The position numbers and the translations under genes were made by a program. The notes below the pieces were generated by a model, which saw only the letters and a program-made list of their open reading frames with translations, did not search any database and was not told where the DNA came from. 64,000 nucleotides of DNA from Actinomyces lilanjuaniae (lineage in GTDB: Bacteria; Actinomycetota; Actinomycetes; Actinomycetales; Actinomycetaceae), in contig NZ_CP032514.1 of the NCBI RefSeq assembly GCF_003606385.1, positions 1,674,001-1,738,000 of the forward strand, written 5' to 3'. Position 1 is the stretch's first letter. Each line of letters opens with the position of its first letter. This document shows, one piece after another, positions 13,154 to 29,940 of this stretch.

Positions 13154-14914
13154 TCAGGAGTAGACGGCGTCAAGCCACCACTGCCCTGCGCGCACGAGCA
13201 GCAGGGGCGGTCCCAGCTCGGGGACCACCTGGAGGTAGGCGCGCCGTGAGGCGCCCCCAGGCCTCCACCACGCCTCGCTGACGGGCCAGGGTCCGGCCCA
13301 GGAGCGGACACGCAGCCGGTGGGGCGAGCACGCCCCGGGAACACACCCGAGGCAGGCCCGCCGGTCCCGCAGGCAGACCGCCTCCGGGCAGGAGACCTCC
13401 AGGTGGGCGGGGGTACCAAGCAGCTGCCCCTGGACGTCAACGTCCAGGTCCTCGCCTAAGGCGCTGCCAAGTCGTACGGGACAGGGCCGGGGCAGGACCA
13501 CGGAGGGAGAGGGCTCTGGGAGCATCCCAGCCCACGGGACGCTTGTCCGTCCCTCCTGCGACCGAGGAAGGCCCTGGGCAGGGCCGGTACGCCCACGCTC
13601 CTGCCCCTCCTGCTCCCCCCAGGTGACGCAGCGCGCCCGCGAGCGCGGGTCCCACCCGGGGACGACCTGAGGCACCTGGACGCTACCTGCACCCAGGAGG
13701 GACTCCAGACGGCTCGCTGCGCGGTGCGCCCGCCTGGCTGACTGGTCACCGGCGCCCCGCCACAGGCCTGTCTGGGCTGCCCCGGCGGGAAAGAGCCCGA
13801 GGGCGACCAGACGCAGACGCTCCAGGGCCGAGGCGGGCGGGCGCCCAGATCGGCCTGCCAGCCAGCCCTCCAGCTGCCAGCGCACACGGTCGGTGACCTC
13901 GGCGGCCGTGGGAGTGGTCTCCAGCATCCAGCAGCGGCACAGACCGGTCCCGTCCTGGCATGACGCCTCCACCAGGAGACGGTCGGCAGCCAGGCCTAGG
14001 GAGACGAGCCTGGAGACCAGCTCCTCAGCCAGGTTCCGGGCTGCAAAGGCAGCGGTGTCGGCACGCTGCGCAGGTGGGTCCAGGACGGCCTCCACGCTCA
14101 CGTCCCTGGCGGGCCGGGTGACGCGCGGCACCTCGTGCTCGGTGCCGCAGGCCAGCCGGTGGAGCCTAGCGCCCGTCGGCCCGAACCGGGCCGCGAGATC
14201 GGCGTGGGGCAGGCGCGCCAGGTCGCCCAGGGTGTACAGGCCCAGGCGTCCGAGGACCTCCACCAGCTCGCGGCCCTCGGCCCTCAGACGGGGGGTGGTC
14301 AGGCAGGCCAGGAGCGACTCCAGCGGCCAGGGCGCGAGGAAGTCAGGAGTATCCCCGGGCTCGACCAGGACCCCCTGGCGGGCGGCGAGGACCGCTCCGG
14401 CCAGGGAGCCGGCAACGCCGACCTGGCATTCGACGTCAGCCTCCTGTGCCACGGCCTCGACCAGAGCCGAGGCCAGCGGATCCTCTCCCCCGGCCCACCG
14501 TGCTGGGCCGCGGGCGGGGCACAGTGCCAGGCCCGGGCGGGCGACGATCGGGTCCGCCAGGATCGCGCTGACCGCGTCCATGACGAGCTCGAAGCCGCGG
14601 GCCTCACGCTCTGCCTGGGGCGGCAGGATGAGGAGCCCAGGACAGGTGGCCCGGGCCAGGCGCGTCCTCATGCCGACGGTGACCCCGGCAGCACGGGCTG
14701 GTGCCGAGGCGGCCAGGACCCGGGCAGCGGCGACGGCCACAGGCGACAGGGCCGGGTCCACATCAGCGCGGCTCTCCCGGAGTCGGGCGCCCCGAGGGGA
14801 CGAGCCGCTTGCACGACGCTGCTCACGGGCCTCCAGGGTCAGGGCCACCACGGGCCAGTCAGGCACCCACAGGGCCAGGAGGCGTCTTTCCGGCACGGCT
14901 CCCGAGGCGCTCAT
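13154..14914 (-). CDS. imuB: ImuB, Y-family polymerase-like mutasome protein
   Basis: A 586-residue protein. ImuB proteins are inactive Y-family polymerases that link DnaE2 and ImuA to the sliding clamp. The N-terminus RRLLALWVPDWPVVALTLEA is the ImuB hallmark; the usual Y-family catalytic acids are not in place. GMRTRLARATCPGLLILP and ELVEVLGRLGLYTLGDLARL (helix-hairpin-helix) follow. The last 150 residues are Arg/Pro/Gly-rich. Its ATG overlaps the imuA stop (ATGA), so translation is coupled. SOS control via the imuA box is likely. Confidence 0.88.
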   Translation of the reverse strand: MSASGAVPERRLLALWVPDWPVVALTLEAREQRRASGSSPRGARLRESRADVDPALSPVAVAAARVLAASAPARAAGVTVGMRTRLARATCPGLLILPPQAEREARGFELVMDAVSAILADPIVARPGLALCPARGPARWAGGEDPLASALVEAVAQEADVECQVGVAGSLAGAVLAARQGVLVEPGDTPDFLAPWPLESLLACLTTPRLRAEGRELVEVLGRLGLYTLGDLARLPHADLAARFGPTGARLHRLACGTEHEVPRVTRPARDVSVEAVLDPPAQRADTAAFAARNLAEELVSRLVSLGLAADRLLVEASCQDGTGLCRCWMLETTPTAAEVTDRVRWQLEGWLAGRSGRPPASALERLRLVALGLFPAGAAQTGLWRGAGDQSARRAHRAASRLESLLGAGSVQVPQVVPGWDPRSRARCVTWGEQEGQERGRTGPAQGLPRSQEGRTSVPWAGMLPEPSPSVVLPRPCPVRLGSALGEDLDVDVQGQLLGTPAHLEVSCPEAVCLRDRRACLGCVPGACSPHRLRVRSWAGPWPVSEAWWRPGGASRRAYLQVVPELGPPLLLVRAGQWWLDAVYS

Positions 14915-15856
14915 CCTGCGCCCCGCAAGGGCGCGGGAGGCGCGGGAGAGGCAGAGGCGGTGGCCACCGGGTCGGGCTCACCCACGCCCAGCCCGTGCGG
15001 ACCGTGGGTGAGCACCGTGCCGCCCAGGCCTCGGTCCGGGTCGCTCAGGCTCCAGCCCAGGGCTCGCAGGTATCCGCCCGGCATCTCTACCGCCCCCCGG
15101 CGGGTGGAGGGCGCGGCGGGAGGCGCGGTCGGCACCGCCTGAGGGTGCAGGGGGACGACGACGCCCCTGCCGTGCGCCTCCTCACACGGGTCATGACCCG
15201 CGCTACCGTCCACCTCACGCACGTCACTGCGCACCTCGTCAGGTAAGCCCAGGCCGGCCGCCCGGGAGCGGCCTCGTCAAGGCGGGACCGCTCGCAGACC
15301 AGGGTCCGGGCACCCTGCCAGGGCAGAGGAGTGAGGATCAGGGTGCCACGCTCCCGTGCCCGTACGAGCAGGCGCCTGCGGCTGCTGGTAGCCAGGCACC
15401 CTGCCGCCTGGGAGGTCAGGAGGAGGACATCGACCCCGTCGACCAGGACTCCCGCGGCAGCCAGGACGCCATCGTGCCCCAGGCCGTCGGCAGGGACGCT
15501 GAGGACCCGGGACAGGTCAAGGCCGAGCTCGGCAGCGGCGCACCAGCCCACCCCTCCCCTCCCAGAACCCCGCACCAGCCGTAGACGCCCTGGCGCAGCG
15601 CCGCAGCGGCCAGGAGGACCGCGGCGGACCCTCCAGGTGCAGGGCCCCGGCAGGGCAGGACCCCAGGTAGTCCAGAGCCCGGAGCGTCCCGAGGACCACC
15701 GGGTGCCGATGGCCCGTTGGAACCCGTGCGCACCGTCGTGGTGGTCGTGGTGGCGCAGCCCGGTGGTCTCCTCCGCCCGCCTGAGGGCCAGACGCGCCGC
15801 AGCCAGCCGCGCGCCCTGTCCCCGAGGGGCTCACCACTACCGCAGACTCCAGTCAT
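14911..15856 (-). CDS. imuA: ImuA-like mutasome protein, five frameshifts
   Basis: A RecA/SulA-related accessory protein of the DnaE2-ImuB mutasome, 316 residues when repaired. GGGAGGAGTAC stands directly before the ATG at 15856. Reading requires one added base at each of five sites: the CCC at 15814, the CCC at 15723, the CCC at 15629, the CCCC at 15551, and about 15240. The result is continuous: LAAARLALRRAEETTG, LGTLRALDYLGSCPAGALHL, GVYGWCGVLGGEGVGWCAAA, LDLSRVLSVPADGLGHDGVL and the C-terminal GGYLRALGWSLSDPDRG. It ends in an ATGA overlap with imuB. Without repair no piece exceeds about 160 relevant codons. Confidence 0.78.
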
Positions 15857-16128: not shown

Positions 16129-16703
16129 GTGGCAACCAACCTCACCCGCCACGACCGCCCGCGCCCTACGACTTCCTGCCCCGTGTCCCCGCCTTCACCC
16201 TGGTCTCCCCGGACGTGACTGAGGGTGAACGCGTCCCCGACAGATTCACGGGCCTCCACGACAACATCTCCCCCGCGCTGAGCTGGTCGGGCTTTCCCGA
16301 GCAGACCCGCTCCTTCGTCGTGTCCTGCTTCGACCCTGACGCGCCCACCCCGGCCGGGTGGTGGCACTGGACCGTGGTGGACCTGGACGTGTCGGTGACC
16401 TCGCTGGAGCAGGGGGCGGGCACCAGCGACCTCCACCTGGACGGAGCCGCCTTCCACCTGGCCGGGGACAGCGGGGACCACGCCTGGTTCGGCCCCTACC
16501 CCCCGGCCGGGGACGGAGACCACCGCTACGTCTTTGCCGTCTCCGCCCTGGACGTAGACACCCTCGGGCTTGACGACGGGGCCTCCCCCACCGCCGCCGC
16601 CTTCACGCTGGCCACCCACTGCCTCGCCCGGGCCACGCTGACCGCTACCTACTCCGTGCCTGGGCAGCCGGGTGCCGCGCCCTTCCTGAAGGAGGCTCAG
16701 TGA
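16129..16703 (+). CDS. YbhB/YbcL-type PEBP (Raf kinase inhibitor-like) protein, one frameshift
   Basis: A 191-residue phosphatidylethanolamine-binding-protein fold. The GTG at 16129 has TGGAGG eight bases upstream. Adding one base to the CCC at 16164-16166 joins MATNLTRHDRPRP to YDFLPRVPAFTLVSPDVTEG in one frame. The ligand-pocket motifs are clear: VSCFDPDAPTPAGWWHW and FGPYPPAGDGDHRY, then FAVSALDVDTLGL. The function of bacterial members is poorly defined. Its stop overlaps the SDR start (GTGA), so the two are co-translated. Confidence 0.85.
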
Positions 16704-17551
16704 CGCTACCGCCCGGTTCTACCGAGCCGACCCGACCCGGGGGACGCCGCCGTCAGGGCGAGGCCGCCACCCCGGCCTTCGGGTTCTCCACGACGAGCAG
16801 CTCCGGACGCCACCAGCGGCGCCCGATAGCCCTGGTGACCGGGGCGACCTCGGGCATCGGCCTGGCTGTGGCCAGGGACCTGGCGCGGGACCACAACCTG
16901 GTCCTGGTCGCCCGTACCGCCACCGACCTGGAGGAGCTCGCGGGTGCGCTGGAGGAGGAGTCCGGGGCCGCGGTCCTGGTGTGCCCGGTCGACCTGGCCG
17001 ACGACACCGCCCTGGCCTACCTGGTCAACCGGATCCAGCTCGACAGCCTCGACGTGCTGGTGCACTGCGCCGGGGTGGAGGCACCGGGAGCGGTCGAGAG
17101 GCTCACCCCGGCCCGCTGGCGCTCGGTGCTGGACCTGAACCTGGTGGCAGCCGCGCACCTGACGAGTCTGGTGCTGCCTGCCCTGCGGGCGTCCCGGGGG
17201 CTGGTGGTGTTCGTCGGCTCGGGTGCGAGCCTGCACGCCTGGCCGGGCCACTCCCTCTACTGCGCGTCCAAGGCGGGCCTCAAGGCCCTGGCCGACACGC
17301 TGCGCGAGGAGGAGCGCGGCCAGGTCCGGGTCACCTCCATCTACCCGGGTCGGGTGGACACTCCGATGCAGGAGCGGCTCCAGGCGCTCAGCGCTGCGCG
17401 CAGGCACGCGGAGGGAGGCCGCGCCCCGGCCTACCGTGCCGCTGACCACATGACGCCGCAGTCGGTGGCCTCGGCGGTGCGCCTGGCCGTGAGCACCTCC
17501 ATGGATGCGGTGGTCGAGGACCTGTCGATCCGCCCCTCTGCCATGCTGTGA
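16700..17551 (+). CDS. Short-chain dehydrogenase/reductase
   Basis: A 283-residue classical SDR using NAD(P)H. The cofactor motif VTGATSGIGLAVA lies at about residues 50-62, after a longer, low-complexity N-terminus. HCAGVEAPGA replaces the usual NNAG. The catalytic Ser and the YCASK pair are in FVGSGASLHAWPGHSLYCAS. IYPGRVDTPM is the conserved post-catalytic loop. An internal start near residue 45 is possible, but GTGA coupling with the PEBP gene supports the start given. The substrate is unknown. Confidence 0.85.
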   Translation: MTLPPGSTEPTRPGGRRRQGEAATPAFGFSTTSSSGRHQRRPIALVTGATSGIGLAVARDLARDHNLVLVARTATDLEELAGALEEESGAAVLVCPVDLADDTALAYLVNRIQLDSLDVLVHCAGVEAPGAVERLTPARWRSVLDLNLVAAAHLTSLVLPALRASRGLVVFVGSGASLHAWPGHSLYCASKAGLKALADTLREEERGQVRVTSIYPGRVDTPMQERLQALSAARRHAEGGRAPAYRAADHMTPQSVASAVRLAVSTSMDAVVEDLSIRPSAML

Positions 17552-17824
17552 CGTGCGACGTGCCACACGACGTTGCAGCGTAGCGCAGGAGCCTGACTTG
17601 CCGCGACAACGAAGCCCGCAACTACTGACATGGGAACGACCATCTTCGTAGTGGCGTCACTTGTGGGCACTGCACTGCCGCGCACCATATGGCTCTGCTT
17701 ACTCTTCCCTGCCCTAGATGCTTGGTCAGTTGGGCTTGAAGGGCTCGCCTCAAGTCCGTCAATTTCTGTCAACTCGACCTGCCCAAAACTACGGTGCGCT
17801 CAAACGGGATCGTTCAGGCTAGCA

Positions 17825-18460
17825 AACCCCGCGCAGCCGCTCGACCTTGCTGCCTGTGTGCGGGCGGTAGGGACCGACGCGGCGGCGCCTTGCCCCGGCG
17901 GCCTGGAGGACCTGGTTGAAGGCCCTGTTGCCGGTCGTGGCCTCCTGCACGGTCACGCCCGGGGAGGCGAGGAAGGCGCTGGTGCGCTGTCAGGATCCTG
18001 CGGCGGTCTGCCTGGTCTCGTCGTCAAGGCCCTCGCAGTCAGACGACCCTGGGGCAGCCGTCCACGGCGTGGTGGAGCCAGCACCAGCCGCGTACGCGCG
18101 TACGGGTGCGGCGGGCCTCCTGGTGGCGCGGTCCTGGGTCGGCCCGTGCCCGTCACACGGCCAGGCTTGTTGACAGCGACGTGGACCGGCTGGCCTGGGA
18201 CGGTCCTCCCCCTGCGCACCGGGGCGGGCACCTGCGTGCGGGCAGGCCGGTGGCCTGGCCTGCATCGGTGAGCCTGGGCATGCGGTAGTGCTTGAGAACC
18301 TGCCCCACGGCGAAGGGCGCCAGACCCAGGTGGCAGGGTGGTCCTGTGCGGCCCCACCGGCACGTGTACCTGACCACGATGATCCCTGCTCCCTCCTGCG
18401 CGCCAGCCGACTGGGGTCGTGGACCGGCCGGCTGGCACGGCCGGTCCACGACCGGCCCAC
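17825..18460 (-). pseudogene. IS481-family transposase remnant
   Basis: Pieces of an IS481 DDE transposase appear in different minus-strand frames. In order: CHLGLAPFAVGQVLKHYRMP (helix-turn-helix region), GQPVHVAVNKPGRVTG (cognate of the VHVDVKKLGR catalytic segment, first Asp lost), STTPWTAAPGSSDCEGLDDE, and RRVGPYRPHTGSKVERL near the C-terminus. Stop codons and frame changes separate them. It marks the left edge of the accessory island. Confidence 0.75.
18415..18453. repeat. Perfect 16-base inverted repeat
   Basis: GGTCGTGGACCGGCCG at 18415-18430 pairs exactly with 18438-18453 across a 7-base loop. It sits at the 5' end of the IS481 remnant. It could be a terminator-like hairpin or part of the element. 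Confidence 0.7.
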
Positions 18461-18815
18461 CCGCCAGCGGCTAGCCCAGCAGGCGCTACAACGTCAAGCA
18501 CTGAACCCCACAGACAGGCATATGAGATAAGTCACGTCAAAGGGTTGTACTCCGCGCACACATGTGTTACCATTCATGTATCAAGCGCGGGAGCGGTGCA
18601 TCACCGAGACCTGTGCCGCTCCTTCTGGGCTGGCATGCGTATCGGGAGCGTCCCGCACATCAAAGGCACGTCGCTTCTCACTCCTTGAGGCTAGTAGTCC
18701 ACAGTGACAATGGCAGTGTTGTCGTCACCCTCGCTGGACCTGCAGAAAGCTCTGCGCATACCTAAAGCCACCCAGGTTCAGACAACTGACACAGATCGAT
18801 ACGGAGTTCCGGTCC
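18461..18815. other. Intergenic region between IS481 remnant and MFS gene
   Basis: No convincing gene in 355 bases. Base composition shifts from GC-rich to mixed here. It probably holds the promoter of the MFS gene at 18816. An ATG at 18710 opens a 43-codon frame with no recognisable content. Confidence 0.4.
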
Positions 18816-20003
18816 ATGAACAACCATTCCTCCGTCCCTGAGGTACAAGATACTTCTTCCACCAGCGCACTCATCGTCGGATCAGTAGCCTTATTTACTG
18901 ATATGCTCGTGGTAGGCCTCGCCGTTCCAGTACTCCCGCTGTTGCCATCAGTGCTGGACGCTGGTCCGGCGGCTACAGGGATTCTGTTCGCCTCTTATGC
19001 CATTGCAATGGTTCTGGCAACCTTCGTCGCCGGACGTACCGTTGATCGGTACGGACCAAAGACCCCTCTACTAATCGGCCTCATAGGACTCGCGATTGCT
19101 ACACTACTCTTCGCCATGGGCGGCCCCTATTTCCTTCTTTTTGTGGCACGGTTCGCCCAGGGGGTAGCGGGAGGAATGTCTTGGGTTGCCTCACTGTCCC
19201 TGATTGCAGCTACCACCCCCATGGAGAAACGAGGGCAAGCCATGGGAATTGCGCTGTCAACAATCACGCTCGGCGTTCTCATCGGTCCGATAGTCGCCGG
19301 GTTCATGGTAGAGCATTTTAACACCTCCGCGCCCTTCCTACTCGCAGCTGGTGTGGCATTTGCTGACGGGCTGTTACGCATCATCCTAGTCAAAGGGACG
19401 CCCCGTGTCACCGATGACACTGGCGGGCCGCTCTCCGTCCTACGGGTTTCCGGATCTACGTCGATCGCGACCACCATCCTCGTCGGGGCAGCAGTCCTGG
19501 CAAGTTTAGAGCCAGTTCTTCCCGTCCACCTCAACACCAGCGCGCTTAACATCGGTCTGCTATTCGCCCTCGCCTCGCTTGCAGGAATTGTTGCAAACCC
19601 CGCCGTGGGCTATTATGTCGGCAAGGTTTCCTCCCGTCTGCTGACTGCTTCTGGGCTGTTATTCATTACCATCGCCCTCTTTATTGTTGGATTCGCCAAT
19701 GAACTCTGGCAGACAAGCGTGGGAATGATTTTTCTGGGCCTCTCGTCAGCATTCCTCCTTGCTCCCGCCACCACATTGATTGCCGACCAGGGATACAAAG
19801 CAAAGCCATCAACACTTGGCGGATCCTTCGCCCTGTATAATCTAGCTTACGCTAGTGGTTTAGCCATAGGACCATTGCTTACTGGCCTCGGGGTGCAACA
19901 GTTGGGATTTAGTATGGCTCTCGTAGTCGCTGCGGTCGTGTTGGCTCTCCTCGGCGGCTTCTCTCTCTCCAGGCTCCCGTCCGGTGTCGCGGCAAACTCC
20001 TAG
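18816..20003 (+). CDS. MFS transporter, 12-helix drug-exporter type, next to the RiPP operon
   Basis: A 395-residue major facilitator in the cytoplasmic membrane. VAGRTVDRYGPKTPLLIG is the helix 2-3 signature and FAQGVAGGMSWVASLSLIA the exporter-type helix 4-5 segment; LSTITLGVLIGPIVAGFMVE is motif C of drug antiporters. Codon use is less GC-biased than in housekeeping neighbours, like the RiPP operon 150 bases away on the other strand. It is the best candidate for product export and self-protection, by position only. Its TAG stop coincides with the edge of a 44-base IS-end-like repeat. Confidence 0.85.
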   Translation: MNNHSSVPEVQDTSSTSALIVGSVALFTDMLVVGLAVPVLPLLPSVLDAGPAATGILFASYAIAMVLATFVAGRTVDRYGPKTPLLIGLIGLAIATLLFAMGGPYFLLFVARFAQGVAGGMSWVASLSLIAATTPMEKRGQAMGIALSTITLGVLIGPIVAGFMVEHFNTSAPFLLAAGVAFADGLLRIILVKGTPRVTDDTGGPLSVLRVSGSTSIATTILVGAAVLASLEPVLPVHLNTSALNIGLLFALASLAGIVANPAVGYYVGKVSSRLLTASGLLFITIALFIVGFANELWQTSVGMIFLGLSSAFLLAPATTLIADQGYKAKPSTLGGSFALYNLAYASGLAIGPLLTGLGVQQLGFSMALVVAAVVLALLGGFSLSRLPSGVAANS

Positions 20004-20044
20004 CTGTACTTGCTTGTGAGGTTGTGTACGTGTTGTGCGGGGGT
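20001..20044 (-). repeat. IS110-end-like repeat, inverted copy of 27931-27973
   Basis: Read on the minus strand, this stretch matches the plus strand at 27931-27973 for nearly its whole length. Shared blocks include ACCCCCGCAC and ACACGTACACAAC. The partner copy lies just 3' of an IS110 transposase remnant, so the repeat is probably the end of that element. The two copies are in opposite orientation and enclose the RiPP operon. Confidence 0.6.
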
Positions 20045-20150
20045 CTTGGTCGCCGGTGCTGGTGTAGGGGCAAGTATATGAGTCCGGTCTCCTCCTTAAC
20101 AGATATAAACTGAGTTGGCAGCCTTATGGAAGTTGTCAGCGTAACTACGT

Positions 20151-20927
20151 CTAGCATACACCATCATCCAGCTCAGGTAGAAGAGAAAACGACGTTTGCG
20201 CTATAAAGCGTTCTTCGTCATCAACAGCAATTACTACCCAGTCACAATTTACCGCAGCAGAACCGCCAGACAACGGAAGGTCTGCCGTAACTATCGGCGT
20301 ATCAGGCGAACATAATACAGTTCTGCAAGAAGTAGTCCCTATTGTCTCCCACAATATATGTATAGGTGTCGTGCTACAAAGTTCTTCAAACGAGACACAG
20401 AAGCGGGCTACACGATTCCCATCATAATTCTTTTCTTCCCTGAGATAAGCATCCAATACCGGAATTGGTGAGACAAAATCTTGCCTGAAAGAGTAAGGAC
20501 CTATTCTTCCTTCTCTATCAAAAACAAAAGCGTCGGTGGTAAGAATATAACCTTCGCGATCACACACTGAAACATTGAAATAGTCTTTATTGTAATTTTC
20601 ATAAAATGGCACCAATAAAACTGTTGTTGCGCGCAAATTATCAGGACTAACGTGGTGAATAATCTCCCTGACTTCCTTGCGTTCTATGAAGAAGAACTTA
20701 TGAGTAATAACTTGTTCTTCGCGAAGGCGCGAGAACTGTGACATGAACTGCAGGCAGATTCCGCCTTCGATCGTACTTGCTTCCACCTGACAACTTACTG
20801 GATAATGTTCAGAAACAATTTGACTTAGAATGTGTTTCTGAGCTGCGGAAGCAATTGAGCATGTGTGAGAAAAGTCGTTACTCGTAATAGTATCCATCGT
20901 ATTGTGCAATCGAAATGATGGACTCAT
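20151..20927 (-). CDS. Unknown protein, last gene of the RiPP operon
   Basis: A 258-residue soluble-looking protein that I do not recognise. ATG at 20927 is chosen because AAAGGAG stands 11 bases upstream and it follows the cyclodehydratase stop by 17 bases. It has no signal peptide or membrane helix. Visible features are seven or more scattered cysteines, an acidic middle region (CDREGYILTTDAFVFDREGR) and a C-terminal all-beta-looking segment. Codon use is AT-rich like the three upstream genes. Position makes it a tailoring, leader-handling or immunity factor candidate. An earlier start at 20966 would overlap the upstream gene. Confidence 0.7.
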   Translation of the reverse strand: MSPSFRLHNTMDTITSNDFSHTCSIASAAQKHILSQIVSEHYPVSCQVEASTIEGGICLQFMSQFSRLREEQVITHKFFFIERKEVREIIHHVSPDNLRATTVLLVPFYENYNKDYFNVSVCDREGYILTTDAFVFDREGRIGPYSFRQDFVSPIPVLDAYLREEKNYDGNRVARFCVSFEELCSTTPIHILWETIGTTSCRTVLCSPDTPIVTADLPLSGGSAAVNCDWVVIAVDDEERFIAQTSFSLLPELDDGVC

Positions 20928-20944
20928 CGAGATCCTGGCTCCTT

Positions 20945-23103
20945 TCATGGAAGAGGATGTGGCCACGGGTTATCCGGAACCGTTTCGTAGCCAACTTCGC
21001 TTGGCAAGTTACGCAGGCGGTCACTTCCCAGCGGCCGTGCACGATGGGTACCAGAAAGGTGCACAAACCCGGGAACCATGACACGTACAGCACGCACACC
21101 TAGCATCTTAACGTCAACTGTAGTCAAATCCACTACGTAGACTTCATGGCCTGTCTTTAAAACTTCCGAAACCAAAAAATCTAGATCTGCATTCACATCA
21201 GAGCCAATATCAGTATGAACAGGAAGAGTTGGACGACATGGAATTGTCGACTTCTCTGGATCAATAATGTATCTCGCCTGATTACGTAACTCTGGATACA
21301 TGCTGTACAGAATAGCGTGGTGATTGAAATCCTCTAAGTTATCAAAATTTTCTCCCGGACTCCAATCCACATATGACGGCATGAGACGTCTAATATATGT
21401 TACCCCTTGCGCGGCTTCTAGGAACGACTTCCTGGCGGCTTGCTCATGAGTGGATCGACACGCACATCCAAAAGACATGATAACATTTCCTTCATGATAA
21501 GTATCCATTACAGCAGCTATCACCGGAAAGGAAACATCGAGAGTAATATCATATAACTCAACTTTCCAGTCTTTTGATAATCCATGATGAAACTCAGGAA
21601 GAGTCAAACTCCCTAAAACAGATGGCAACATCTTCCTGGGAGGAAGTCGATGCATCCACGATATAGCCAACGCATCACGCTCAACAATCTCCTGAAGGCC
21701 GCTAAGCACCGCCTGCTCGTAACTAGGACCTACCGCCATTCCAGTAGATATAGACTGAGCGAAAACAGATTCTCCCTCTAGTCTTCTATACGGGAGAAAA
21801 ACCTGGCACGCAGGAACCCACACGTCCACCTTATCTGACCATCGAACTGCTTTTACCCATCTGATTATAGTATCATTATCAAAGGGAACAAGAGGGAGAT
21901 TCATCCTTCCAAACTGCTGGTCGGTAAAGAATTTAAATAGAGTCGGATCCACCGCCTCGTCATCAAGACTATTATAACTACTAAGGCGTAAAGAACTTCC
22001 ATTATATATCCCTGCCGCGTAGCGCTCCAGCGACTCGCCTATGGCGGCAGTCCTGGCTTCCTTGGCTGAGAAACCGGCCCCTCCATTATTAACAGCACGC
22101 ATGGAACTACGTATGACCCTAGAATCAGAGGATGTGCTTCCACTTAAGTACACAGACGGTCCTATGGTCGGCTCAACGGGAGTTACCGAATGAATTATAC
22201 CAGTTCTCTCGTCAAGAGCATCCTCAATGTCCAGCGATTCTGTGATAGATGCCTCATGGTGAAAGTCCCTGCAAGTTTTACATGTTGGGACAGGAAGGAC
22301 CACGTGGGTACTAGGCACAAGGGTGTCCGTTTTTAGGAAAACAACTTCTTGCCCCTTAGAAGAACCGGTCCATTTAGTATACTCATTCAACCTGCGTATA
22401 ACCCATATCGCTATGCAGGACATAACATCGGGCAGAAGTTGATGCTTAAGAGGATGTGCTTCTGAGCGACGCAAACTTTCTATGTACTCTTGATAGAGTG
22501 AACTGTACTGCGAGTTTGCCACAGTTCTGGTACGTAAACAAGTTATGCAACCTCCGAGCGACGAAGGACGACGCAACGGGCCGATAAATGCCATACCGGT
22601 AGGTCCAAGACCAGCATATAGATAGCATGCTCTTTTCTGAAGTACAGCCCTCTGCAAATTGTCTATAGCGGGATCGATTAGAGAACGAGAAACTATGATA
22701 ACAACATCCCCGGTACCAGCGCTTGCTATGTTGTAGCCATGCTCCTGGAGCCTAGTACTTAGATCCGTCACCATCATTTCATCGCCCACTAATGACACAG
22801 TGGGTATAGCATCAATTGAAACGGGGTCATCGTTTTCATATAGTAAGACGCCGATATCAAGTAGCTGTCCCAGTATTTCTCCTATCTCTTCTTCGGAAAT
22901 TACTTCAATGAACTCTGCAACGATTTCGTGATAATATCGATACGAACTAAGGAATGGCCACAGCCTCCCCTCAAAGATATCGAGTCTCTGCCCTCAAGTC
23001 TATACACCATTTCTGAAGTTTCGATATAACCTGCCATACTCTCGGATGAAAGATGAACTGTTGCGTCCTTACGCAACTTTAGTCTTAACATGCCGCCACG
23101 CAT
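20945..23103 (-). CDS. Fused E1-like/YcaO azoline-forming cyclodehydratase (TOMM CD-type), one frameshift
   Basis: About 719 residues when repaired. YcaO enzymes use ATP to cyclise Cys/Ser/Thr of a precursor peptide to azolines. Residues 1-100 look like a RiPP recognition/E1-like domain. Two Cys pairs, CITC near 186 and CKTC near 275, are the zinc site of the C domain. The YcaO part starts near 300: GFSAKEARTAAIGESLERYA and SGLQEIVERDALAISW carry ATP/Mg-site acids. The last residues, NPWPHPLP, form the PxPxP tail of azoline-forming YcaOs. One added base at the AAA at 22973-22975 joins YRLEGRDSIS to FEGRLWPFLS. The start follows the dehydrogenase stop by one base. Confidence 0.85.
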
Positions 23104-23104
23104 C

Positions 23105-24761
23105 CTAATCCTTTCCCTTACTTCCTAAGGCAATCAGATGTAGAACTACATCGTCGACTCCATCGTAGCCTACAAACTCGTTCACGAGATCGTCTATGAA
23201 CCCTCCTATTGGGTGAGCAACGAGCCCAACACTGCCTGCAGCTACAATTATGCTCTGTGCTAAGTGTCCGCAATCCAGTAGGACGGTACGATAGCCCCGT
23301 TCCCAATATTTCCACTGATTTCTTCTAAGGGAAGCGCCGAGCAGCACCAGTACTGCTGACGATGATATGCGCTCTGAGTACCCAGTTAACTTACATGCGT
23401 ATGCCATCCTCGCATCTTCATTTACAAGTTGAAGGCAGTTCTTGTTTGGATTTAGATAATATAGGCCCCTATCTATTGTCGAAACATTCTCAACTAATAC
23501 AAATATATCATTCGAGTATAGCCCCCTCCTGAGGGCGTGGCTCGTAGAGGAAACTTTGTATTGCTGCTGCTATTAAATCCGGTTCCTGTAATCCATAGGC
23601 AGCATATAGTATGTGCGAAAGTTCTCTATATCCAATAGCTTCGTTACCGAATGGAGTCCAGGATCGACGAGTTCCTATAATCTCTTTAAATGGCGCAGTT
23701 CTAACCTCTGTGGTGTCGCTAAGCACATATTCACGCTTGGTGAATCTATAGTCACGCGTTGCGTGGCGCATTGTGGAAACTATGGGAGCAGCAGTTCTCT
23801 TTGAACTAACTACTGAAAGATCTTTGAAGTCAACGTATATTTTTGACCGTTCGTGAAATATTCTGGACGCCAGTACTTCGTGTCGGCCATGAGTCATTGA
23901 AAATTCGGTAGGTCCTAACAGCCCGATATGGATTGCATCTACTTCGGATAGTATACTTTCGCACATACCTTTCGGGGTGTTGCACATTTTAGCTTCTGAG
24001 ACCCATATTCCATGCTGTTTCCAAGTTCGCGTGTAGATATGCGGGGTTATGTCATATGAGATCGCATCTAATCTTTCAGTACTATCAGTATACTTCTTAA
24101 CACGTTCATCATTGTAATTGATCGATGCCATGTCTATCCAGGGTGCCGATCCCGTTCTTGGCAGCCGAAAAGCATCAAACTTCGAAAGGAGCATATCCTT
24201 CGCCCGGTGCTCAGCATCGTCACCGCAGCCAACAGCAGCAAGATAATTTGGCCTCCGGTCGAAGACCGATTCTATGATACGGACAGGCACAGGTACTACA
24301 TCAGTGTATGAACGAACAATAACTTTGCCTGCAATGTTCTTTAATTCTCGCACAGTTGGACTCGTCTGCTGGGCGGCTAAAGTTAGCCTGTTCTGGCTCG
24401 CCAGTAGAGTACTCACAAGTTTTTCGTAACATGATATTACTGCACGGCTCTTCGCGGAATCCTTGTCGAACGAAACACCAACAGCGGTGATATTACTATC
24501 ACCTACTGCACTCACACGTCGCGCAGTAAGTTCTTTTTCGGTAAGCAGTCTTACTGCATCTTTGAAGGAAGTTGCTGATGAAGCAATTTGGCGAATTTCC
24601 ACGGGGCGTGCCGAGAGCTCAATGCCAGGCTCACCGTCACTGTCGTCCACGAGCGCTGCTGTATGGTGCTCAAATCCAGGCAACACAGGGACCTGGCGCA
24701 CCGCTAGACGCATTCCCGACAACAGTTCTAGAAGTGTGTTTACTTTAATCCTGTTATCCAT
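23105..24761 (-). CDS. SagB-type FMN azoline dehydrogenase with long N-terminal extension, two frameshifts
   Basis: About 552 residues when repaired. SagB-type enzymes oxidise azolines to azoles with FMN. The dehydrogenase lies in the C-terminal half: FHERSKIYVDF, FKEIIGTRRSWTPFG, then, with one base added at 23555-23557 and one at 23522-23526, FPLRATPSGGGLYSNDIFVL, and finally WKYWERGYRTVLLDCGHLAQ. The first 290 residues are not typical; SFDKDSAKSRAVISCYEKL and CGDDAEHRAKDMLLSKFDAF faintly resemble YcaO helices. ATG 24761 has GGAG eight bases upstream and overlaps the previous stop. The next gene starts one base after its stop. Confidence 0.8.
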
Positions 24762-25659
24762 AGTACTCACTCCATGCTGCTTGCGGGGATTTAACGTCCG
24801 CACAGTTTCTGCAGTACGGATTTTTCCACACAGATATCTTTTTCTGCTCAAACTTGAGTACGTCCGCGATGACGACCGTACCCCATGGATGATATGGCCC
24901 TATAGGTGTCACCGCCCTCAGCGCTTGTGCTGCCAAAATTCCGCCGATCCAGGTTAGTGATGACGGCTGTCGACTGAGCCACGAAGAGCAGGGCGTGCTT
25001 GGTTGTTGCTCCGTTGTATTTCGAGCAGCGTTACACGCTGGGCAAGCAGATTCTCCGGGAGATACCCAGGGGCCAATTATAATCTCCGACGTATTGAATT
25101 GCACCGGTACCCATCTTCGCTTATCATCATGAAAATTGGTGGAATCCTTCAAAATCTCACTTTCGCTTGAGTATACTTTTATGATAGCAAATGCTCTTCT
25201 TGGACTATCGGCAACCATCAAGCCTTGGTCAAGTAGCATTGCGCGCCACTTCAATGCTATACTTTCTGGAGCCTCGATGTAAAACATTTTATTCTGAGTA
25301 CCTTCGTATATGCTGTCAACTTTCGCGCTTCGTCTAGCAAGGTACGTATATAACTGTCTAGTCGGCTCCGAAGTAACCTTTGCTGCTACGGGCAGCAATA
25401 TCCCTGCTTCTATAAGTTGATCAACGTACGGTTCAAGGAGCAAGAATTCCTCTTTAGAAATTTGATTCGACATAGGAATAGACCTGCATATTTTCGGCAC
25501 AACTTCCTTAAGAAGGACATTCATTGTCTCTTCCTCGCTCGGCGGAACCTTTATCGCCAACTTCTTTGCTCCGGTAGTTACAACTATTTCACCTCCAATC
25601 TTTGAAGAGACCTGCACATCCGACGCTGCTAACACTAGCGACCGAGAAGAAGTACTCAT
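24754..25659 (-). CDS. TOMM cyclodehydratase partner protein (E1/Ocin-ThiF-like)
   Basis: A 301-residue protein, first gene of the operon. Such proteins bind the precursor leader peptide and stimulate the YcaO enzyme. Residues 1-95 could be the peptide-recognition winged helix. Two Cys pairs, CPAC (206-209, in GPWVSPGESACPAC) and CRNC (283-286, in KNPYCRNC), are the structural zinc site of the family. WIGGILAAQALRAVTP between them is the conserved helix. The ATG has only a distant AAGGAG, 17 bases away. The cluster thus encodes two E1-like modules, this one and the N-terminus of the fused YcaO protein. Confidence 0.82.
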   Translation of the reverse strand: MSTSSRSLVLAASDVQVSSKIGGEIVVTTGAKKLAIKVPPSEEETMNVLLKEVVPKICRSIPMSNQISKEEFLLLEPYVDQLIEAGILLPVAAKVTSEPTRQLYTYLARRSAKVDSIYEGTQNKMFYIEAPESIALKWRAMLLDQGLMVADSPRRAFAIIKVYSSESEILKDSTNFHDDKRRWVPVQFNTSEIIIGPWVSPGESACPACNAARNTTEQQPSTPCSSWLSRQPSSLTWIGGILAAQALRAVTPIGPYHPWGTVVIADVLKFEQKKISVWKNPYCRNCADVKSPQAAWSEYYG

Positions 25660-25849
25660 GCTTGTTTCAACCCACTCCTTTGCATTTATCGGTGCTGAAC
25701 ATTACGCAACTGCTTATATTCTAGATCACTCTGATGCCTGCATCACTACTGTTATAGGTTGTTCTGACACACTACTTTCCGTGGTACACTTAGTTTACTA
25801 TTGATATACTCTGAAGTTCGCTGCCGTACTGGCATTGGTGCTGGTCAAT
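25660..25849. promoter_or_regulatory. AT-rich region with the presumed RiPP operon promoter
   Basis: This region lies directly upstream of the first operon gene. On the minus strand, TATAAC and AATATAAG provide -10-like hexamers, but no clear -35 pairs with them. On the plus strand an ATG at 25658 opens 48 codons up to 25804 (see findings). No regulator gene is visible in the cluster. Confidence 0.35.
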
Positions 25850-26150
25850 CTTGCTTGTCGTAGTGGACCGGCCGACGGCTGCGACCGGTCAGCGGCAGCC
25901 CAACTGGTAGTGGTCGGGTCCGCCCAGCCGTGGCCGACGAGCACCGAAGCCTCTCTGCTGCCAGGCACAGACCCTGTCAGCCGCGCCTACTACGACCGCA
26001 AGACCACCCGGGCAGACGCCACAACCTGGCCCTGCTCGCCTAGACCCACCGACGCATTCTCACCCTCTACGCCATGAAACGCGACAACTCTCTACTCCCC
26101 CTTCACCACCAAGAACCTACCTACCGCTGCTTGACACGTTACCTTGTTGG
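25850..26150 (+). pseudogene. IS110-family transposase fragment (C-terminal end)
   Basis: TDPVSRAYYDRKTTRADA, then in another frame THRRILTLYAMKRDNSL, match the C-terminal end of IS110 transposases (consensus DPVSRAYYDRK...RRLxVLYAMLRD). Only this end remains, with a frame change and a stop. It abuts the promoter side of the RiPP operon. Confidence 0.65.
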
Positions 26151-26352
26151 TGGTTGCCGGTGAAGGAGTGCCGGTGGCTGGGCCAGCGGTGGTCGGCATG
26201 ATGTCTTGCCCCTGTCGTCTGATGATCCGGGGGTGTTGTCACCGACCGTTGCGAGGCTGCTGGTGACCGCTGACTAGGGGAACGACCGCGCACTGTACGA
26301 GCTCCTTCGCAGGCGTCGGTGCGGCGCCGGGAGCCGAGGGCCGACCCGTATT

Positions 26353-27356
26353 GTGTTAGAGGTGAGCGTGTTTACTGCTTTGGAAGGACTGATCCTGATG
26401 GCTGTGACTGATGACAGGATGGCTGACGTGGCTGCTGGTACTTCCAGCGGGCGCGACGTGGTTAAGCGGCTGAGCGGCTGGGTGAGTCTGGTGGCCTGGA
26501 CGACCTATTCGAGCGCATCGACTCCGGCCAGGTCGAGTTGACCGGTACCGACGGGCTCCTGCCAGCCTTGCTCAAGGAGTCCCTGGAACGGAGCCTCCAG
26601 GCCGAGATGACCGAGCCTTGGGCTACGATAAGGGCAAGCACACGCCCGTGGCGCGTGGCAGCACCCGTAACGGCACACGACCAAGACCGTCAGCTCCGAG
26701 GTGGGCTCTTTAGAGATCGAGGTGCCCCGGGACCGGGCCGGCAGCCTCACGCCCCGCCTGGTGCGCAGGGGCCAGCGGCGCCTGGATGAGCTGGGCTCCA
26801 TGATCACCCGTCCTGTACGCTGGGTCCGCGCCTCCACGCGGTTCGTGACCTACCAGGACCGCAAGAGGGTCGCCGCAGCCCTCAGGCCCGTCTGCACCGC
26901 TCCCAGCCAGCAGGCCGCCCTGGAGGCCCTCGTCGACCAGCGGGGCCAGAAGTACCCCCAGGCCGTGGCGACCTGGCAGAGGGCCGGGAGCGGCTCGCCC
27001 CGCTCCCGGCCCTCCCTTCGGCCCTGCGCCGCGTCATCTCTCCCCCAGTACGTGGGAGGTGCCCCGCCGCCAACGCGATCGAGTCGCTGAGTTACCAGCC
27101 GCGCAAGGTGCCAAGAGACCGGGGGCGCCTTCCCTCCCACGAGGCCGCCGTCAAGCTGCTGTGGCTGGCCATCTGCAACATCGAGGACAGGCGCGCCCGC
27201 CAACGAGACAAGGAGCGCAACCAGCCACCCAGCAGGCACAGGGCCAAGGGCCGCCTCATCCAGGGGCACGCCACCACCAGCTGGAAACAGGCCCTCACCC
27301 AGCGCGCCGCAGCCTACCCCGACCGCCTGACCAACAAGCTCACACAGACAACTTGA
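26353..27356 (+). pseudogene. IS256-family (mutator) transposase remnant
   Basis: Segments in several plus-strand frames follow IS256 transposase order: TGTDGLLPALLKESLERSLQ, SSEVGSLEIEVPRDRAGSLT, RKRVAAALRPVCTAPSQQAA, and near the end NAIESLSYQPRK, ending in KLLWLAICNIEDRRARQRDK. The central catalytic part between the second and third segments is missing, so an internal deletion has occurred. Frame changes are also present. This copy cannot encode an active enzyme. Confidence 0.75.
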
Positions 27357-27364
27357 CAGGCTCT

Positions 27365-27980
27365 TAGAGGTCATCGCCGCCTGGTCCGCACCCGCCGACC
27401 TGCGCAAGGCCGACAGAGCGTGTACCGACGCTAGGCCCATTTCCAGCGGGTACAGACACCACACCGCCTGGACACAGGCCATCATCGACGACGTCGCCGC
27501 CCAGGTCGAAGCCTACCCGGCCCCCTGGCCACCCGCGCCTGACACCAGGGGCAGGACCGCAGCCGTCTTCCTGGCCGAGACCCTCGGCAGAACCTTCCCC
27601 ACCGGCGCCACCTGGCCTGACTGCTCCAGGCTCACTCCCGTCACCCGGCGCTCCGACTCCTCCATACACGGTGCCTACGTCTCATACGCCGACAGCAAGC
27701 ACCCCAAGCGGGCAATGCTCCTCCCAGCCCTCGCCTCCCTCAGACCAGACCCCGCATCCCGCGCCTACCACGACCGCAAACGCCCCAGGGAAAACATCAC
27801 AACCAAGCCATACCCGCCCTCGCACACCGTCGTGTCCTCACCCTGCACGCGATGATCCGAGACAGATCCCTCCACGCCCCCCAACCAGCACACGACTTAC
27901 CCGCCTCCGCTTGACACACCACACAGGGACACCCCCGCACGACACGTACACAACTGACAGGAAAGTACAGTTAGGCTTGG
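27365..27980 (+). pseudogene. IS110-family transposase remnant with its right end
   Basis: The C-terminal domain of an IS110 transposase is readable: FPTGATWPDCSRLTPVTRRS, then SSIHGAYVSYADSKHPKRAM and SRAYHDRKRPRE, with RRVLTLHAMIRDRSLHAP in a shifted frame. The catalytic N-terminal part is absent. The 43-base element end at 27931-27973 follows the coding remnant. Confidence 0.7.
27931..27973 (+). repeat. IS110-end-like repeat, partner of 20001-20044
   Basis: Matches the minus strand at 20001-20044, with the same ACCCCCGCAC and ACACGTACACAAC blocks in the same order. It is the copy adjacent to a recognisable IS110 remnant. Confidence 0.6.
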
Positions 27981-27989
27981 GTCATCGGT

Positions 27990-28265
27990 GACGTGAACCT
28001 TGGCGGACCAGGCGCCTCAGCAGGCCCCAGAAACGTGGTCGGCCGACTCGTCTTCGGTCGTCTTGTTCCCGGCAGCGAACGCGTGTGTACGGCAGGCCGT
28101 GGAGCCCACCAACACTTGTCGGCTGGCCTTGCCTACGGCGTTGGCCTGAGCGACCAACTCCGCCTCGACTCGCTCCCACACCCCCTCCAGTTGCCAGGCG
28201 CGACACAGGTCGTAGCCCCTCCACCACTGCCCGTAGCACATTGGAGTGCTGGGTGTTTTTCGGCC
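27990..28265 (-). pseudogene. IS5-family transposase fragment (middle part)
   Basis: WRGYDLCRAWQLEGVWERVE and LVGSTACRTHAFAAG match the middle of IS5-type transposases, including the region of the first catalytic Asp (here DS replaced by GS). The N-terminal part of probably the same element is found at 29202-29290, on the other side of an IS3 remnant. Confidence 0.65.
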
Positions 28266-28289
28266 ACACCTTGTTGGGTGTACTTATGC

Positions 28290-29180
28290 TGCTCTATCTG
28301 CTGTCAGCAACTGGGTCCCGGTCCTCGTTTGGGGCCGGTGGCCTAGTGCTTGAGTGGAGGTGTACCTGGTTGTATCTCGGATCGATCCGCGAGGCAATGT
28401 TACTGACCGCCTTCTTCCTTGTCGAGTACACCATCTGGTGGACCTTCTCGTTCTTCAGCGTGGCGTTGAAGGACTCTGCCCACGCACCCGCCCAGTCACG
28501 CCCCGGTCCGAGCCGCCGAAAGACGGATACCACAGGCCTCCAGGTGAACCGGGAACTCCTGGGAGGTGTACTGGCCCCCGGTCAGAGTAGAAGATAGTGG
28601 TTCCTCTCTCGTAGGGGCAGCGTTCTGTCGCCATGTCCACGGCCTCGCGTACCAGGCTGGTACGCATGCGGTCGGCCATCGCGTAGCCCAGTCCCAGTAC
28701 CCCGACCTTGACACCCGGACCACCGGCACATCGACGACACCGGGCAGGTCCCTCCTCGCTGGGGATGAGGGACTACCTCTGTCCTGCTCCTGATCCCTCG
28801 CGAAGAAGGCTGCGACTTTTCTAGGAACTCGACCTCCATCCCGGCCTCACGCAGTTCGGCCCTAAGACGGCGTGTCTCAGCAACCTCCTCCGCCGCTCCC
28901 GCCTCGTCGCCTCTTGCCTGCTCCCTCCCTGTACCACGCGACCCAGCTGACCACCGTCTGCAGCGGGATGTCATAGGCACCTGCCACGGCGGCCACCGTG
29001 CGGTCCTTAACACGCGACCTCACGCACCACCTGGGCACTGCCCCCAGCAGCGTGCTCCTGGCATGGTCCCACCCCTCACCGCTCATAAAGAGCCGTGTTT
29101 TGATCCCAGTAGCCGAGCAAACACCACCCACCCCCACAGACACGTCTCCCCACATGCCCCGATCCTTACCCCGCCCCATC
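28290..29180 (-). pseudogene. IS3-family element remnant (orfA and orfB pieces)
   Basis: VKDRTVAAVAGAYDIPLQTV near 29000 is the orfA helix-turn-helix. RRLRAELREAGMEVEFLEKS is the coiled-coil leucine zipper of orfA. VSRSGYWDW begins orfB; IFYSDRG, YTSQEFPVHLEACGIRLSAA and NAWAESFNATLKNEKVHQMV are its catalytic DDE-region pieces. Frames change between them and the middle of orfB is deleted. The order on the minus strand is preserved. Confidence 0.75.
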
Positions 29181-29201
29181 AGCCAGGAACCGTAACGGGT
29201 A

Positions 29202-29290
29202 CTACCGAGCGCAGGGCACAGGCAACAACGGGAGAGAAGAGAGCGGCTCCCACTGAGCGTCGGTCAGGTCATAACGGACAAAGATGCCTG
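29202..29290 (-). pseudogene. IS5-family transposase fragment (N-terminus)
   Basis: MGTGIFVRYDLTDAQWEPLS is the start of an IS5-type transposase (consensus RYDLTDAQW). Together with 27990-28265 it indicates one IS5 copy split by the IS3 element. Confidence 0.6.
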
Positions 29291-29412
29291 TACCCATCAT
29301 CCGAAGCGTTTGGCGAGATCCTGTGTAATTTAGCAGCTGGCACTCCGAAAGCCTCGTCTGCCCTGTGCCACACCGACCACATCCCGACTCTCGCAACAGG
29401 CCCCATCCGTTC

Positions 29413-29940
29413 TCAGCAGTCTCCGGTCGGGCGGGGTGACGGCTCCTGTACAGCCTGCGGCCCCGCCCCCTCCGAGGCGTGTCCTCCGGGGAAGCCGAGG
29501 CAGCGCCAGGCCTCGTAGACGACGACGGCTGCGGAGTTGGCGAGGTTGAGCGAGCGGCTGCCAGCCACCATGGGGATGCGGATCCGGCCGGTGACCCGGG
29601 GGTGGCTCATGACCTCCTCAGGCAGTCCTGTCGGCTCCGGCCCCAGCAGCAGGGCGTCGTCGTCACGCCAGTCCACCTGGGTGTAGAGGCGGTCGCAGTG
29701 CGCGGTGAGGGCGAGGACCCGTCCGGGGACGTGCTCCAGGCACTCCTCCAGGGTCTGGTGCACCCGCGTCCTGGCCAGGTCGTGGTAGTCCAGCCCGGCA
29801 CGACGCAGCCTGGGCTCGTCCATGCTGAACAGCGGGTCCACCAGGTGGAGGGCAGCACCGGTGTTGGCGCTGAGCCTGATCGCCGCACCGGTGTTGCCGG
29901 GGATCCGCGGCTCGAAGAAGATCATGTGCAGCACGGGCAC
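29413..29940 (-). CDS. trmL: tRNA (cytidine(34)-2'-O)-methyltransferase
   Basis: A 175-residue SPOUT methyltransferase that 2'-O-methylates the wobble base of certain leucine tRNAs using S-adenosylmethionine. The family motifs are IFFEPRIPGNTGAAIRLSAN (motif 1), LLLGPEPTGLPEEVM (knot motif 2) and IPMVAGSRSLNLANSAAVVV (motif 3, SAM pocket). The length is normal for TrmL. It starts with GTG, 13 bases after the end of the upstream flavoprotein gene, so the two are probably co-transcribed. It marks the return to chromosomal housekeeping sequence after the IS remnants. Confidence 0.92.
   Translation of the reverse strand: MPVLHMIFFEPRIPGNTGAAIRLSANTGAALHLVDPLFSMDEPRLRRAGLDYHDLARTRVHQTLEECLEHVPGRVLALTAHCDRLYTQVDWRDDDALLLGPEPTGLPEEVMSHPRVTGRIRIPMVAGSRSLNLANSAAVVVYEAWRCLGFPGGHASEGAGPQAVQEPSPRPTGDC

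What the first reader, a model, noticed from the sequence alone, without database searches (positions are those of the whole stretch)
20151..25659. AT-rich azol(in)e RiPP (TOMM/LAP-type) operon in a GC-rich genome
Four minus-strand genes with overlaps or gaps of 1-17 bases encode an E1-like partner (CPAC/CRNC zinc site), a SagB-type FMN dehydrogenase (RATPSGGGLY and YRTVLLDCGHLAQ), a fused E1-like/YcaO cyclodehydratase with PxPxP tail, and an unknown protein. This set makes thiazoles/oxazoles in a ribosomal peptide. Two E1-like modules plus one clear YcaO is not the common arrangement, and the last gene is unrecognised. Codon use is unlike the host, indicating recent acquisition. It may encode an undescribed linear azole peptide or thiopeptide-like product.
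Basis: partly seen in the sequence, partly recalled or inferred. Interest (0 to 1): 0.88.

Follow-up and report, generated by a model that had tools for sequence, protein, structure and literature searches.

The report
Decayed telomestatin-type azole peptide cassette
A bacterium that is probably an Actinomyces carries an inserted, apparently broken and orphaned copy of the four-gene machinery that relatives use to make ring-shaped oxazole/thiazole peptides of the telomestatin and YM-216391 kind; it is most likely a relic of a known system, not a new antibiotic pathway.

Summary
The azole-peptide (TOMM) genes are real, but most likely a relic of a known kind. The order F/E1 – SagB dehydrogenase – E1-YcaO – DUF5944 fits the published description of telomestatin tlsO-P-Q-R and recurs in 8 other genomes read here (5 actinobacterial strains, 2 genomes of the window's order, 1 Brevibacillus). 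The 'unknown' fourth gene is DUF5944, the YmB1/TlsR family; its model shows two Ig/FN3-like beta-sandwich domains, which does not support YmB1's published label 'cyclodehydratase'. Intact relatives have a ~42-residue precursor with a short Cys/Ser/Thr core and acidic tail. A profile of such peptides finds one in 5 of 5 DUF5944-bearing genomes searched (2 outside the alignment), but none in this genome. The window's SagB homologue runs through three reading frames, and the YcaO N-terminal part lies in another frame. The cassette sits with IS remnants in a ~11.9 kb insertion; the site is empty in 3 of 3 relatives compared. One core host gene (acnA) is also out of frame, so assembly error is a live rival. 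'Linear azole or thiopeptide-like product' is not supported. In passing: a plantazolicin-like cluster elsewhere in the genome, and five telomestatin/YM-type precursors in other bacteria.

The parts
17552..29479 (.). ~11.9 kb insertion between an SDR gene (16700-17551) and a SpoU-type methylase gene; site empty in the relatives compared
   Evidence: In 3 of 3 relatives compared (L124, L126, L129; fetched from 3 of the 6 genomes) the two flanking genes are neighbours, and DNA matches to the window stop at 17551 and at 29480-29483
18816..20003 (+). MFS efflux transporter; membership of the cluster undecided
   Evidence: PF07690. 50-52% to the MFS beside cassettes L092/L094 and 40-43% to those near L005-L008, but 66% to a Dietzia plasmid MFS whose annotated 20.7 kb neighbourhood lists no azole gene and 61-62% to MFS genes in 4 other genomes of the genus
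20021..20044 (+). Left arm of a 24-nt inverted repeat, 96% complementary; partner at 27931-27954
   Evidence: with up to 3 mismatches only these 2 copies in the whole genome, 0 for the control
20151..20927 (-). DUF5944 protein (TlsR/YmB1 family), open frame; start chosen by me, the mechanical ORF reaches 20966
   Evidence: PF19369 E 1e-56; model pLDDT 89.4, all-beta, two domains
20945..22798 (-). E1-like plus YcaO cyclodehydratase (TlsQ-like), 617-aa frame with the conserved YcaO columns and PxPxP-type tail
   Evidence: TIGR03604 248.2 bits; alignment A1; tree
22900..23103 (-). Detached N-terminal part (leader-binding region, by position) of the YcaO protein, in another frame
   Evidence: ORF; frames read; 18 of the 19 relatives in A1 carry this part in one frame of 677-763 aa, the 19th (P0003, 600 aa) lacks it. 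No family model matched this piece alone
23105..24761 (-). SagB-type dehydrogenase (TlsP-like), spread over three frames
   Evidence: frames -3, -2, -1; the C-terminal piece alone matches TIGR03605, 57.3 bits, below the whole-protein cut-off 78.4; the N-terminal piece matched no model
24754..25659 (-). F protein: N-terminal winged domain plus E1-like domain with a four-cysteine site (TlsO-like), open
   Evidence: TIGR03882 43.3 bits; 25-32% to 6 relatives with all four Cys invariant; model pLDDT 83.3, Foldseek best to TruD and LynD heterocyclases, then MccB and a McbBCD chain
25821..29200 (.). IS remnants: IS256 (Mutator), IS3 (rve) and IS110-type pieces
   Evidence: an IS110-type piece at about 25.9-26.1 kb is my reading of the ORF, not a tool result
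27931..27954 (-). Right arm of the 24-nt inverted repeat

Best explanation
The island holds a decayed, orphaned modification cassette of the telomestatin/YM-216391 kind of macrocyclic polyazole RiPP. In intact relatives a ~42-residue precursor carries a short Cys/Ser/Thr-rich core (eight residues in tlsC) between an acidic leader and an acidic follower. The F protein binds the leader and brings it to the E1-YcaO cyclodehydratase, which uses ATP to close azoline rings; the SagB partner oxidises them to azoles with FMN (established chemistry of these families, not shown here). The DUF5944 protein, two Ig/FN3-like domains without a recognised active site, most likely acts as a non-catalytic scaffold or clamp that holds the complex or the rigid polyazole chain for head-to-tail closure (inferred); M16 peptidases trim leader and follower (proposed in print). 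In the window F and DUF5944 are open, the YcaO has its N-terminal part in another frame, the dehydrogenase is broken twice, and no precursor or peptidase was found, so the cassette most likely makes nothing.
For: Same four genes in the same order in the six best (L005-L010) of the 80 loci kept, and in two more genomes, L092 and L094. The other 74 of the 80 loci, some of them short, have no DUF5944 hit by phmmer at E 1e-3. Window YcaO lies within a 15-row clade (98/99 support); all 7 other rows whose neighbourhood I read carry the cassette. The published tls order O (unknown), P (FMN oxidoreductase), Q (YcaO), R (homologue of YmB1) fits, and deleting each of the four abolishes telomestatin (PMC5469769, section 6). 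DUF5944 = YmB1: L101/L102 fits the published order ymI-A-D-E-B1-C1-F-BC (which gene is D, E or BC is recalled), and a 261-aa Streptomyces nobilis DUF5944 protein is filed as cyclodehydratase. Breakage. Missing precursor: profile A4 gives best E 0.876 on 13 residues inside a 762-aa frame in this genome, but finds the precursor in 5 of 5 DUF5944-bearing genomes searched (4 tls-type, 1 ym-type), 2 of them not in the alignment (3.5e-13, 3.1e-9). Window YcaO branch 0.84 against 0.32 for its nearest row. Insertion and IS remnants.
Against: I had no TlsO-R sequences; the tls link rests on published gene descriptions plus YmB1 homology. The assembly has at least one other frame break in a core gene: acnA is in two frames here but lies in one open frame of 892-984 aa in 6 of 6 relatives. 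YcaO keeps its conserved columns, F and DUF5944 are open, and the closest YcaO relative (P0003, 600 aa) also lacks the N-terminal part, so that loss may not be damage. Missing peptidases prove little: deleting tlsS, tlsT or both only reduced telomestatin. On DUF5944, the telomestatin authors instead presume that TlsO and TlsR form the last thiazoline, and the fold matches are weak as whole-protein matches (TM-score at most 0.31 in the 50 rows listed). The sister place of P0003 has only 88/77 support. The precursor profile rests on 7 short peptides.
Confidence: 0.72

Rival explanations
1. The frame breaks are assembly errors and the cassette is alive, modifying a precursor too unlike the known ones to be found by the profile.
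For: acnA is also out of frame in this assembly. F, the YcaO core and DUF5944 remain open with conserved residues.
Against: Three breaks in ~5.5 kb against one in ~33 kb of host genes: by a simple Poisson sum 0.0007 at the point rate, but 0.066 at an upper 95% rate (the 33 kb and the upper rate are my own arithmetic). No precursor in the genome, although the profile finds those of 2 of 2 genomes outside its alignment. No peptidase or regulator family matched by the insertion ORFs scanned.
Confidence: 0.2
2. A reduced but working system: F, E1-YcaO and DUF5944 make azoline-only peptides, acting on a precursor elsewhere such as the one of the second azole cluster.
For: In heterocycloanthracin clusters the fused cyclodehydratase lacks ~100 N-terminal residues and depends on the F protein (PMC4603692, passage); the window YcaO (617 aa) has that shape, and so has P0003.
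Against: The second cluster has its own F/E1, YcaO (TIGR03604 208.5 bits, just under the cut-off 219.25) and SagB and a leader of another kind. The longer branch of the window YcaO suggests relaxed constraint.
Confidence: 0.04
3. A linear azole peptide or thiopeptide-like cluster.
For: F protein plus fused cyclodehydratase is, in the 2015 survey, almost confined to thiopeptide and heterocycloanthracin clusters (PMC4603692, passages).
Against: DUF5944 and the YcaO clade point to macrocyclic polyazoles. No dehydratase or cycloaddition family among the island ORFs scanned.
Confidence: 0.04

Closest known systems
Telomestatin cluster (tls), Streptomyces anulatus
   Same: Order F-like (tlsO), FMN oxidoreductase (tlsP), YcaO (tlsQ), YmB1-like (tlsR), as described in PMC5469769 (passages and section 6); that tlsO is the F protein is inferred
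   Different: In the window no precursor, regulator, fatty-acid-like genes or peptidases were found; the P homologue is broken and Q is split; AT-rich; host is not Streptomyces. No direct sequence comparison with tls proteins was possible
YM-216391 cluster (ym), Streptomyces nobilis, and the related loci L099, L101, L103
   Same: DUF5944 (YmB1), YcaO, nitroreductase-family (SagB-type) protein
   Different: L101 has a separate 476-aa YcaO in another part of the tree, a P450 and other genes in another order
Heterocycloanthracin and thiopeptide F-dependent cyclodehydratases
   Same: F protein with a fused E1-YcaO
   Different: No DUF5944 there as far as I know (recalled), other precursors, other products
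Cassettes in Kineosporia mesophila (L094; P0033 is identical to its YcaO) and G492 (L092)
   Same: Same four genes in order; MFS nearby
   Different: Open frames, GC-rich; in G492 an M16-like gene downstream (by eye, not scanned) and a precursor ending GCSSSSTTSSLDISDVEFE

Membership tests
Telomestatin-type (tls) macrocyclic polyazole cluster | Gene order O-P-Q-R (F/E1, SagB, E1-YcaO, DUF5944) | tested here: met
   against the description; tls sequences themselves not compared
Telomestatin-type (tls) macrocyclic polyazole cluster | YcaO in the clade of the intact cassettes | tested here: met
   15-row clade, 98/99
Telomestatin-type (tls) macrocyclic polyazole cluster | ~42-residue precursor with Cys/Ser/Thr core and acidic follower | tested here: not met
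   None in the window; best E 0.876 in the whole genome, positives in 5 of 5 other genomes searched
Telomestatin-type (tls) macrocyclic polyazole cluster | All four modification genes open | tested here: not met
   SagB in three frames, YcaO N-terminus detached, as assembled
Telomestatin-type (tls) macrocyclic polyazole cluster | Peptidase genes (tlsS, tlsT; M16 in L097) beside DUF5944 | tested here: not met
   DUF5944 is followed by the convergent MFS gene; in L097 by an M16 gene. In tls they are not strictly required
Telomestatin-type (tls) macrocyclic polyazole cluster | Head-to-tail polyazole product | not testable with these tools
   Needs metabolite analysis
YM-216391-type cluster | Stand-alone YcaO with P450 and FIVGSSSC-like core (gene names recalled) | tested here: not met
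   Window YcaO is fused to an E1 domain; no P450 among the island ORFs scanned; no such precursor in the genome
Thiopeptide | LanB-type dehydratase and [4+2] cyclase genes in the cluster | tested here: not met
   Not matched by the island ORFs scanned; the rest of the genome was not scanned for them
F-protein-dependent TOMM cyclodehydratase (wider group) | TIGR03882 protein beside a fused E1-YcaO | tested here: met
   TIGR03882 43.3 bits (F) and 47.1 bits (fused protein), cut-off 36.9; TIGR03604 248.2 bits. Dependence itself was not tested

The most novel reading that the evidence does not exclude
DUF5944 (YmB1/TlsR) is not a cyclodehydratase but a non-enzymatic double-Ig clamp that marks and drives head-to-tail closure across both the tls and ym types; the cassette in this genus is a surviving side branch that may still work through F, E1-YcaO and DUF5944 on an unrecognised peptide.
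Probability: 0.12. Interest if true: 0.6.

Novelty: new member of a known kind. Interest (0 to 1): 0.36.

Why it matters
It places a telomestatin-type cassette, most likely in decay, in a bacterial family where my search found no other (1 of 213 genomes, the own one), identifies the 'unknown' gene, and turns an old puzzle (what TlsR/YmB1 does) into a structural hypothesis: an Ig-like scaffold rather than a cyclodehydratase. The comparison also brings out several precursor peptides that may encode relatives of telomestatin or YM-216391.

Tried and rejected
Rejected: (1) SagB as one gene. (2) DUF5944 as a cyclodehydratase: the best sequence match to solved structures has E 1; Foldseek's best rows are Factor XIII, RbmA and fibronectin-type domains, with low TM-scores; VIA-align tested mainly residues 28-142, so the second domain is less tested and an active site is not excluded. 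(3) The MFS gene as proof of a larger cluster: first favoured, then weakened by closer relatives elsewhere: on a Dietzia plasmid with no azole gene listed nearby, and in genomes of the genus where DUF5944 was not found. (4) Fatty-acid-like genes as part of the system here: present beside the cassette in L097, not seen in the window; in tls their loss lowered, but did not abolish, telomestatin. (5) Plasmid origin: no DUF5944 or F match in plasmids; the YcaO matches listed there (40 of 119 records) have 22-32% identity.

Led nowhere: homologue search with the DUF5944 protein alone returned only itself; the first genome-contig scan found no relative; no paper in the held library names DUF5944. 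DUF5944 was found in 0 of 401 genomes of the family of G038 (the tool warns that nothing rang there, but the same model rang), though Corynebacterium cystitidis has a 44% YcaO relative whose neighbourhood I could not read.
Full report
WHAT IS THERE. The window lies at G000:C1:1674001-1738000 of a 3.02 Mb single-contig genome. Host DNA is 70.7% GC; the four genes and the stretch upstream are 40-47%, the neighbouring MFS gene 56%. On the minus strand from 25659 to 20151 lie: an F protein (E1-like, TIGR03882, 43.3 bits, cut-off 36.9), a SagB-type dehydrogenase, an E1-like plus YcaO protein (TIGR03604, 248.2 bits, cut-off 219.25) and a DUF5944 protein (PF19369, E 1e-56).

THE GENES ARE BROKEN AS ASSEMBLED. 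SagB proteins of three relatives (L006, L008, L010) align to the window in frame -3 up to 23592, frame -2 at about 23589-23521 and frame -1 from 23524 to 23108. The N-terminal part of the YcaO protein, present in one frame of 677-763 aa in 18 of the 19 relatives aligned (P0003, 600 aa, lacks it), is here a separate 67-aa ORF in another frame (22900-23103). F (301 aa), the YcaO core (617 aa) and DUF5944 are open. To judge the assembly I compared the window with proteins from three relatives: 31 same-frame stretches, 37.3 kb including two pairs that conflict in strand. One gene, acnA, is split between two frames, while in 6 of 6 relatives it lies in one open frame of 892-984 aa (in G440 the match comes as two pieces of one frame). 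At one break per ~33 kb (my sum without the conflicting pairs), three in 5.5 kb has Poisson probability 0.0007, but 0.066 at an upper 95% rate. Decay is favoured, not proven.

THE CASSETTE IS A KNOWN KIND. The six best (Streptomyces sp. WM6378, S. hygroscopicus, S. orinoci, S. sp. yr375, Pilimelia terevasa, Brevibacillus migulae) all carry F, SagB, YcaO and DUF5944 in the window's order; the other 74 loci, some of them short, have no DUF5944 hit. Two more genomes of the window's order have the cassette (L092, L094); the YcaO of L094 is identical to that of Kineosporia mesophila (P0033). DUF5944 is rare: 1 of 396 genomes of the phylum sample (the own one), 3 of 297 of the order (own included), 5 of 392 of the genus of G023 (Streptomyces, inferred; 2 tls-type, 3 ym-type), 1 of 213 of the host's family (the own one), 0 of 401 of the family of G038; the sampled sets overlap in part. 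In a 39-row tree the window YcaO lies in a 15-row clade with these cassettes (98/99), in a four-row group (100/100) with P0003, P0004 (Corynebacterium cystitidis) and P0005, on a longer branch (0.84) than P0003 (0.32). The ym-type YcaO proteins lie outside that clade.

LINK TO TELOMESTATIN AND YM-216391. The telomestatin paper (PMC5469769; passages; section 6) describes tlsC, a 42-residue precursor with core CTTSSSSS; tlsD-N, fatty-acid-like genes needed for an aliphatic amine; tlsO, unknown; tlsP, FMN oxidoreductase; tlsQ, YcaO; tlsR, homologue of YmB1; and peptidases tlsS and tlsT. Deleting any of O, P, Q or R abolished the product; deleting S, T or both reduced it. L097 (S. yr375) shows this layout: precursor, methyltransferase, then MaoC, acyltransferase, reductases, ACP, ketosynthase, class III aminotransferase and others, then F-SagB-YcaO-DUF5944 and an M16 peptidase. 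L101/L102 fits the published YM-216391 order ymI-A-D-E-B1-C1-F-BC (PMC10339500, passages) as JmjC, precursor with FIVGSSSC, YcaO, P450, DUF5944, two genes without a family match and a nitroreductase-family protein; a S. nobilis DUF5944 protein is filed as 'cyclodehydratase'. DUF5944 is therefore, with good likelihood, YmB1/TlsR. I did not hold the tls or ym protein sequences apart from that one. That FIVGSSSC is the YM-216391 core, and FIIGSSCC that of curacozole, is recalled.

NO PRECURSOR HERE. Precursors found in relatives: L005 core CSSSSSCS, L105 CTCSSSST, L097 CSTTTTSS, L092 CSSSSTTS, and a six-fold FIIATSCS repeat in Brevibacillus L010; core limits are set by analogy with tlsC and ymA. 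A seven-peptide profile finds a precursor in 5 of 5 DUF5944-bearing genomes searched (four tls-type, one ym-type), two of them not in the profile (3.5e-13, 3.1e-9; L010's genome was not held). In the window's genome its best score is E 0.876 over 13 residues inside a 762-aa frame. No peptidase lies beside DUF5944 in the island.

HOW IT CAME. In 3 of 3 relatives compared, the genes that flank 17552-29479 are neighbours, and DNA matches stop at 17551 and 29480-29483. The insertion also holds IS256-, IS3- and IS110-type remnants and a 24-nt inverted repeat at 20021 and 27931 that was found nowhere else in the genome. The MFS gene (18816-20003) belongs to the subfamily found beside intact cassettes, but closer relatives occur elsewhere: on a Dietzia plasmid whose annotated neighbourhood lists no azole genes, and in other genomes of the genus, where DUF5944 was not found.

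VERDICT. A real, horizontally gained azole cassette of known type, most likely dead. Novelty is modest: its place, its decay and the reassignment of DUF5944. Paper searches made; no title or abstract start that I saw in their listings reports a tls-type cassette in this genus, but the listings are cut to the best rows, subscription journals are mostly not held, and only PMC5469769, PMC10339500 and PMC4603692 were opened, none in full. I did not search print for the precursors listed above one by one.

Noticed in passing
L003 (G000:C1:2884000-2903000), 8110-15566: A second azole cluster in the same genome: F/E1, YcaO, SagB, ABC transporter and methyltransferase, with an upstream precursor ORF reading ...LFEPTAARCSSSSSTCCIACVRL; the layout recalls plantazolicin (resemblance recalled).
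   Followed up: partly
L010 8872-9408: Brevibacillus migulae: a 178-aa precursor-like ORF with six copies of FIIATSCS, beside a DUF5944 cassette and a second fused YcaO.
   Followed up: partly
L005 17495-17623; L097 2399-2527; L105 2074-2202; L092 17684-17800: Telomestatin-type precursors with cores that by analogy read CSSSSSCS, CSTTTTSS, CTCSSSST and CSSSSTTS; possible new telomestatin relatives.
   Followed up: partly
L011 around 3203: Clostridiales MAG: small ORF ending GCTTTSVDVNDLELEEK near a 35% YcaO relative; possible precursor of the same kind outside actinobacteria.
   Followed up: no
window 33933-36615: acnA is in two frames here, though it lies in one long open frame in 6 of 6 relatives: assembly error or real loss.
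   Followed up: partly
G000:C1:835138-836312: A second copy of the MFS subfamily, matched in two pieces; a copy likewise matched in two pieces occurs in G1108.
   Followed up: no
window 20021-20044 and 27931-27954: 24-nt inverted repeat found nowhere else in the genome; possible ends of an old element spanning the cassette.
   Followed up: partly
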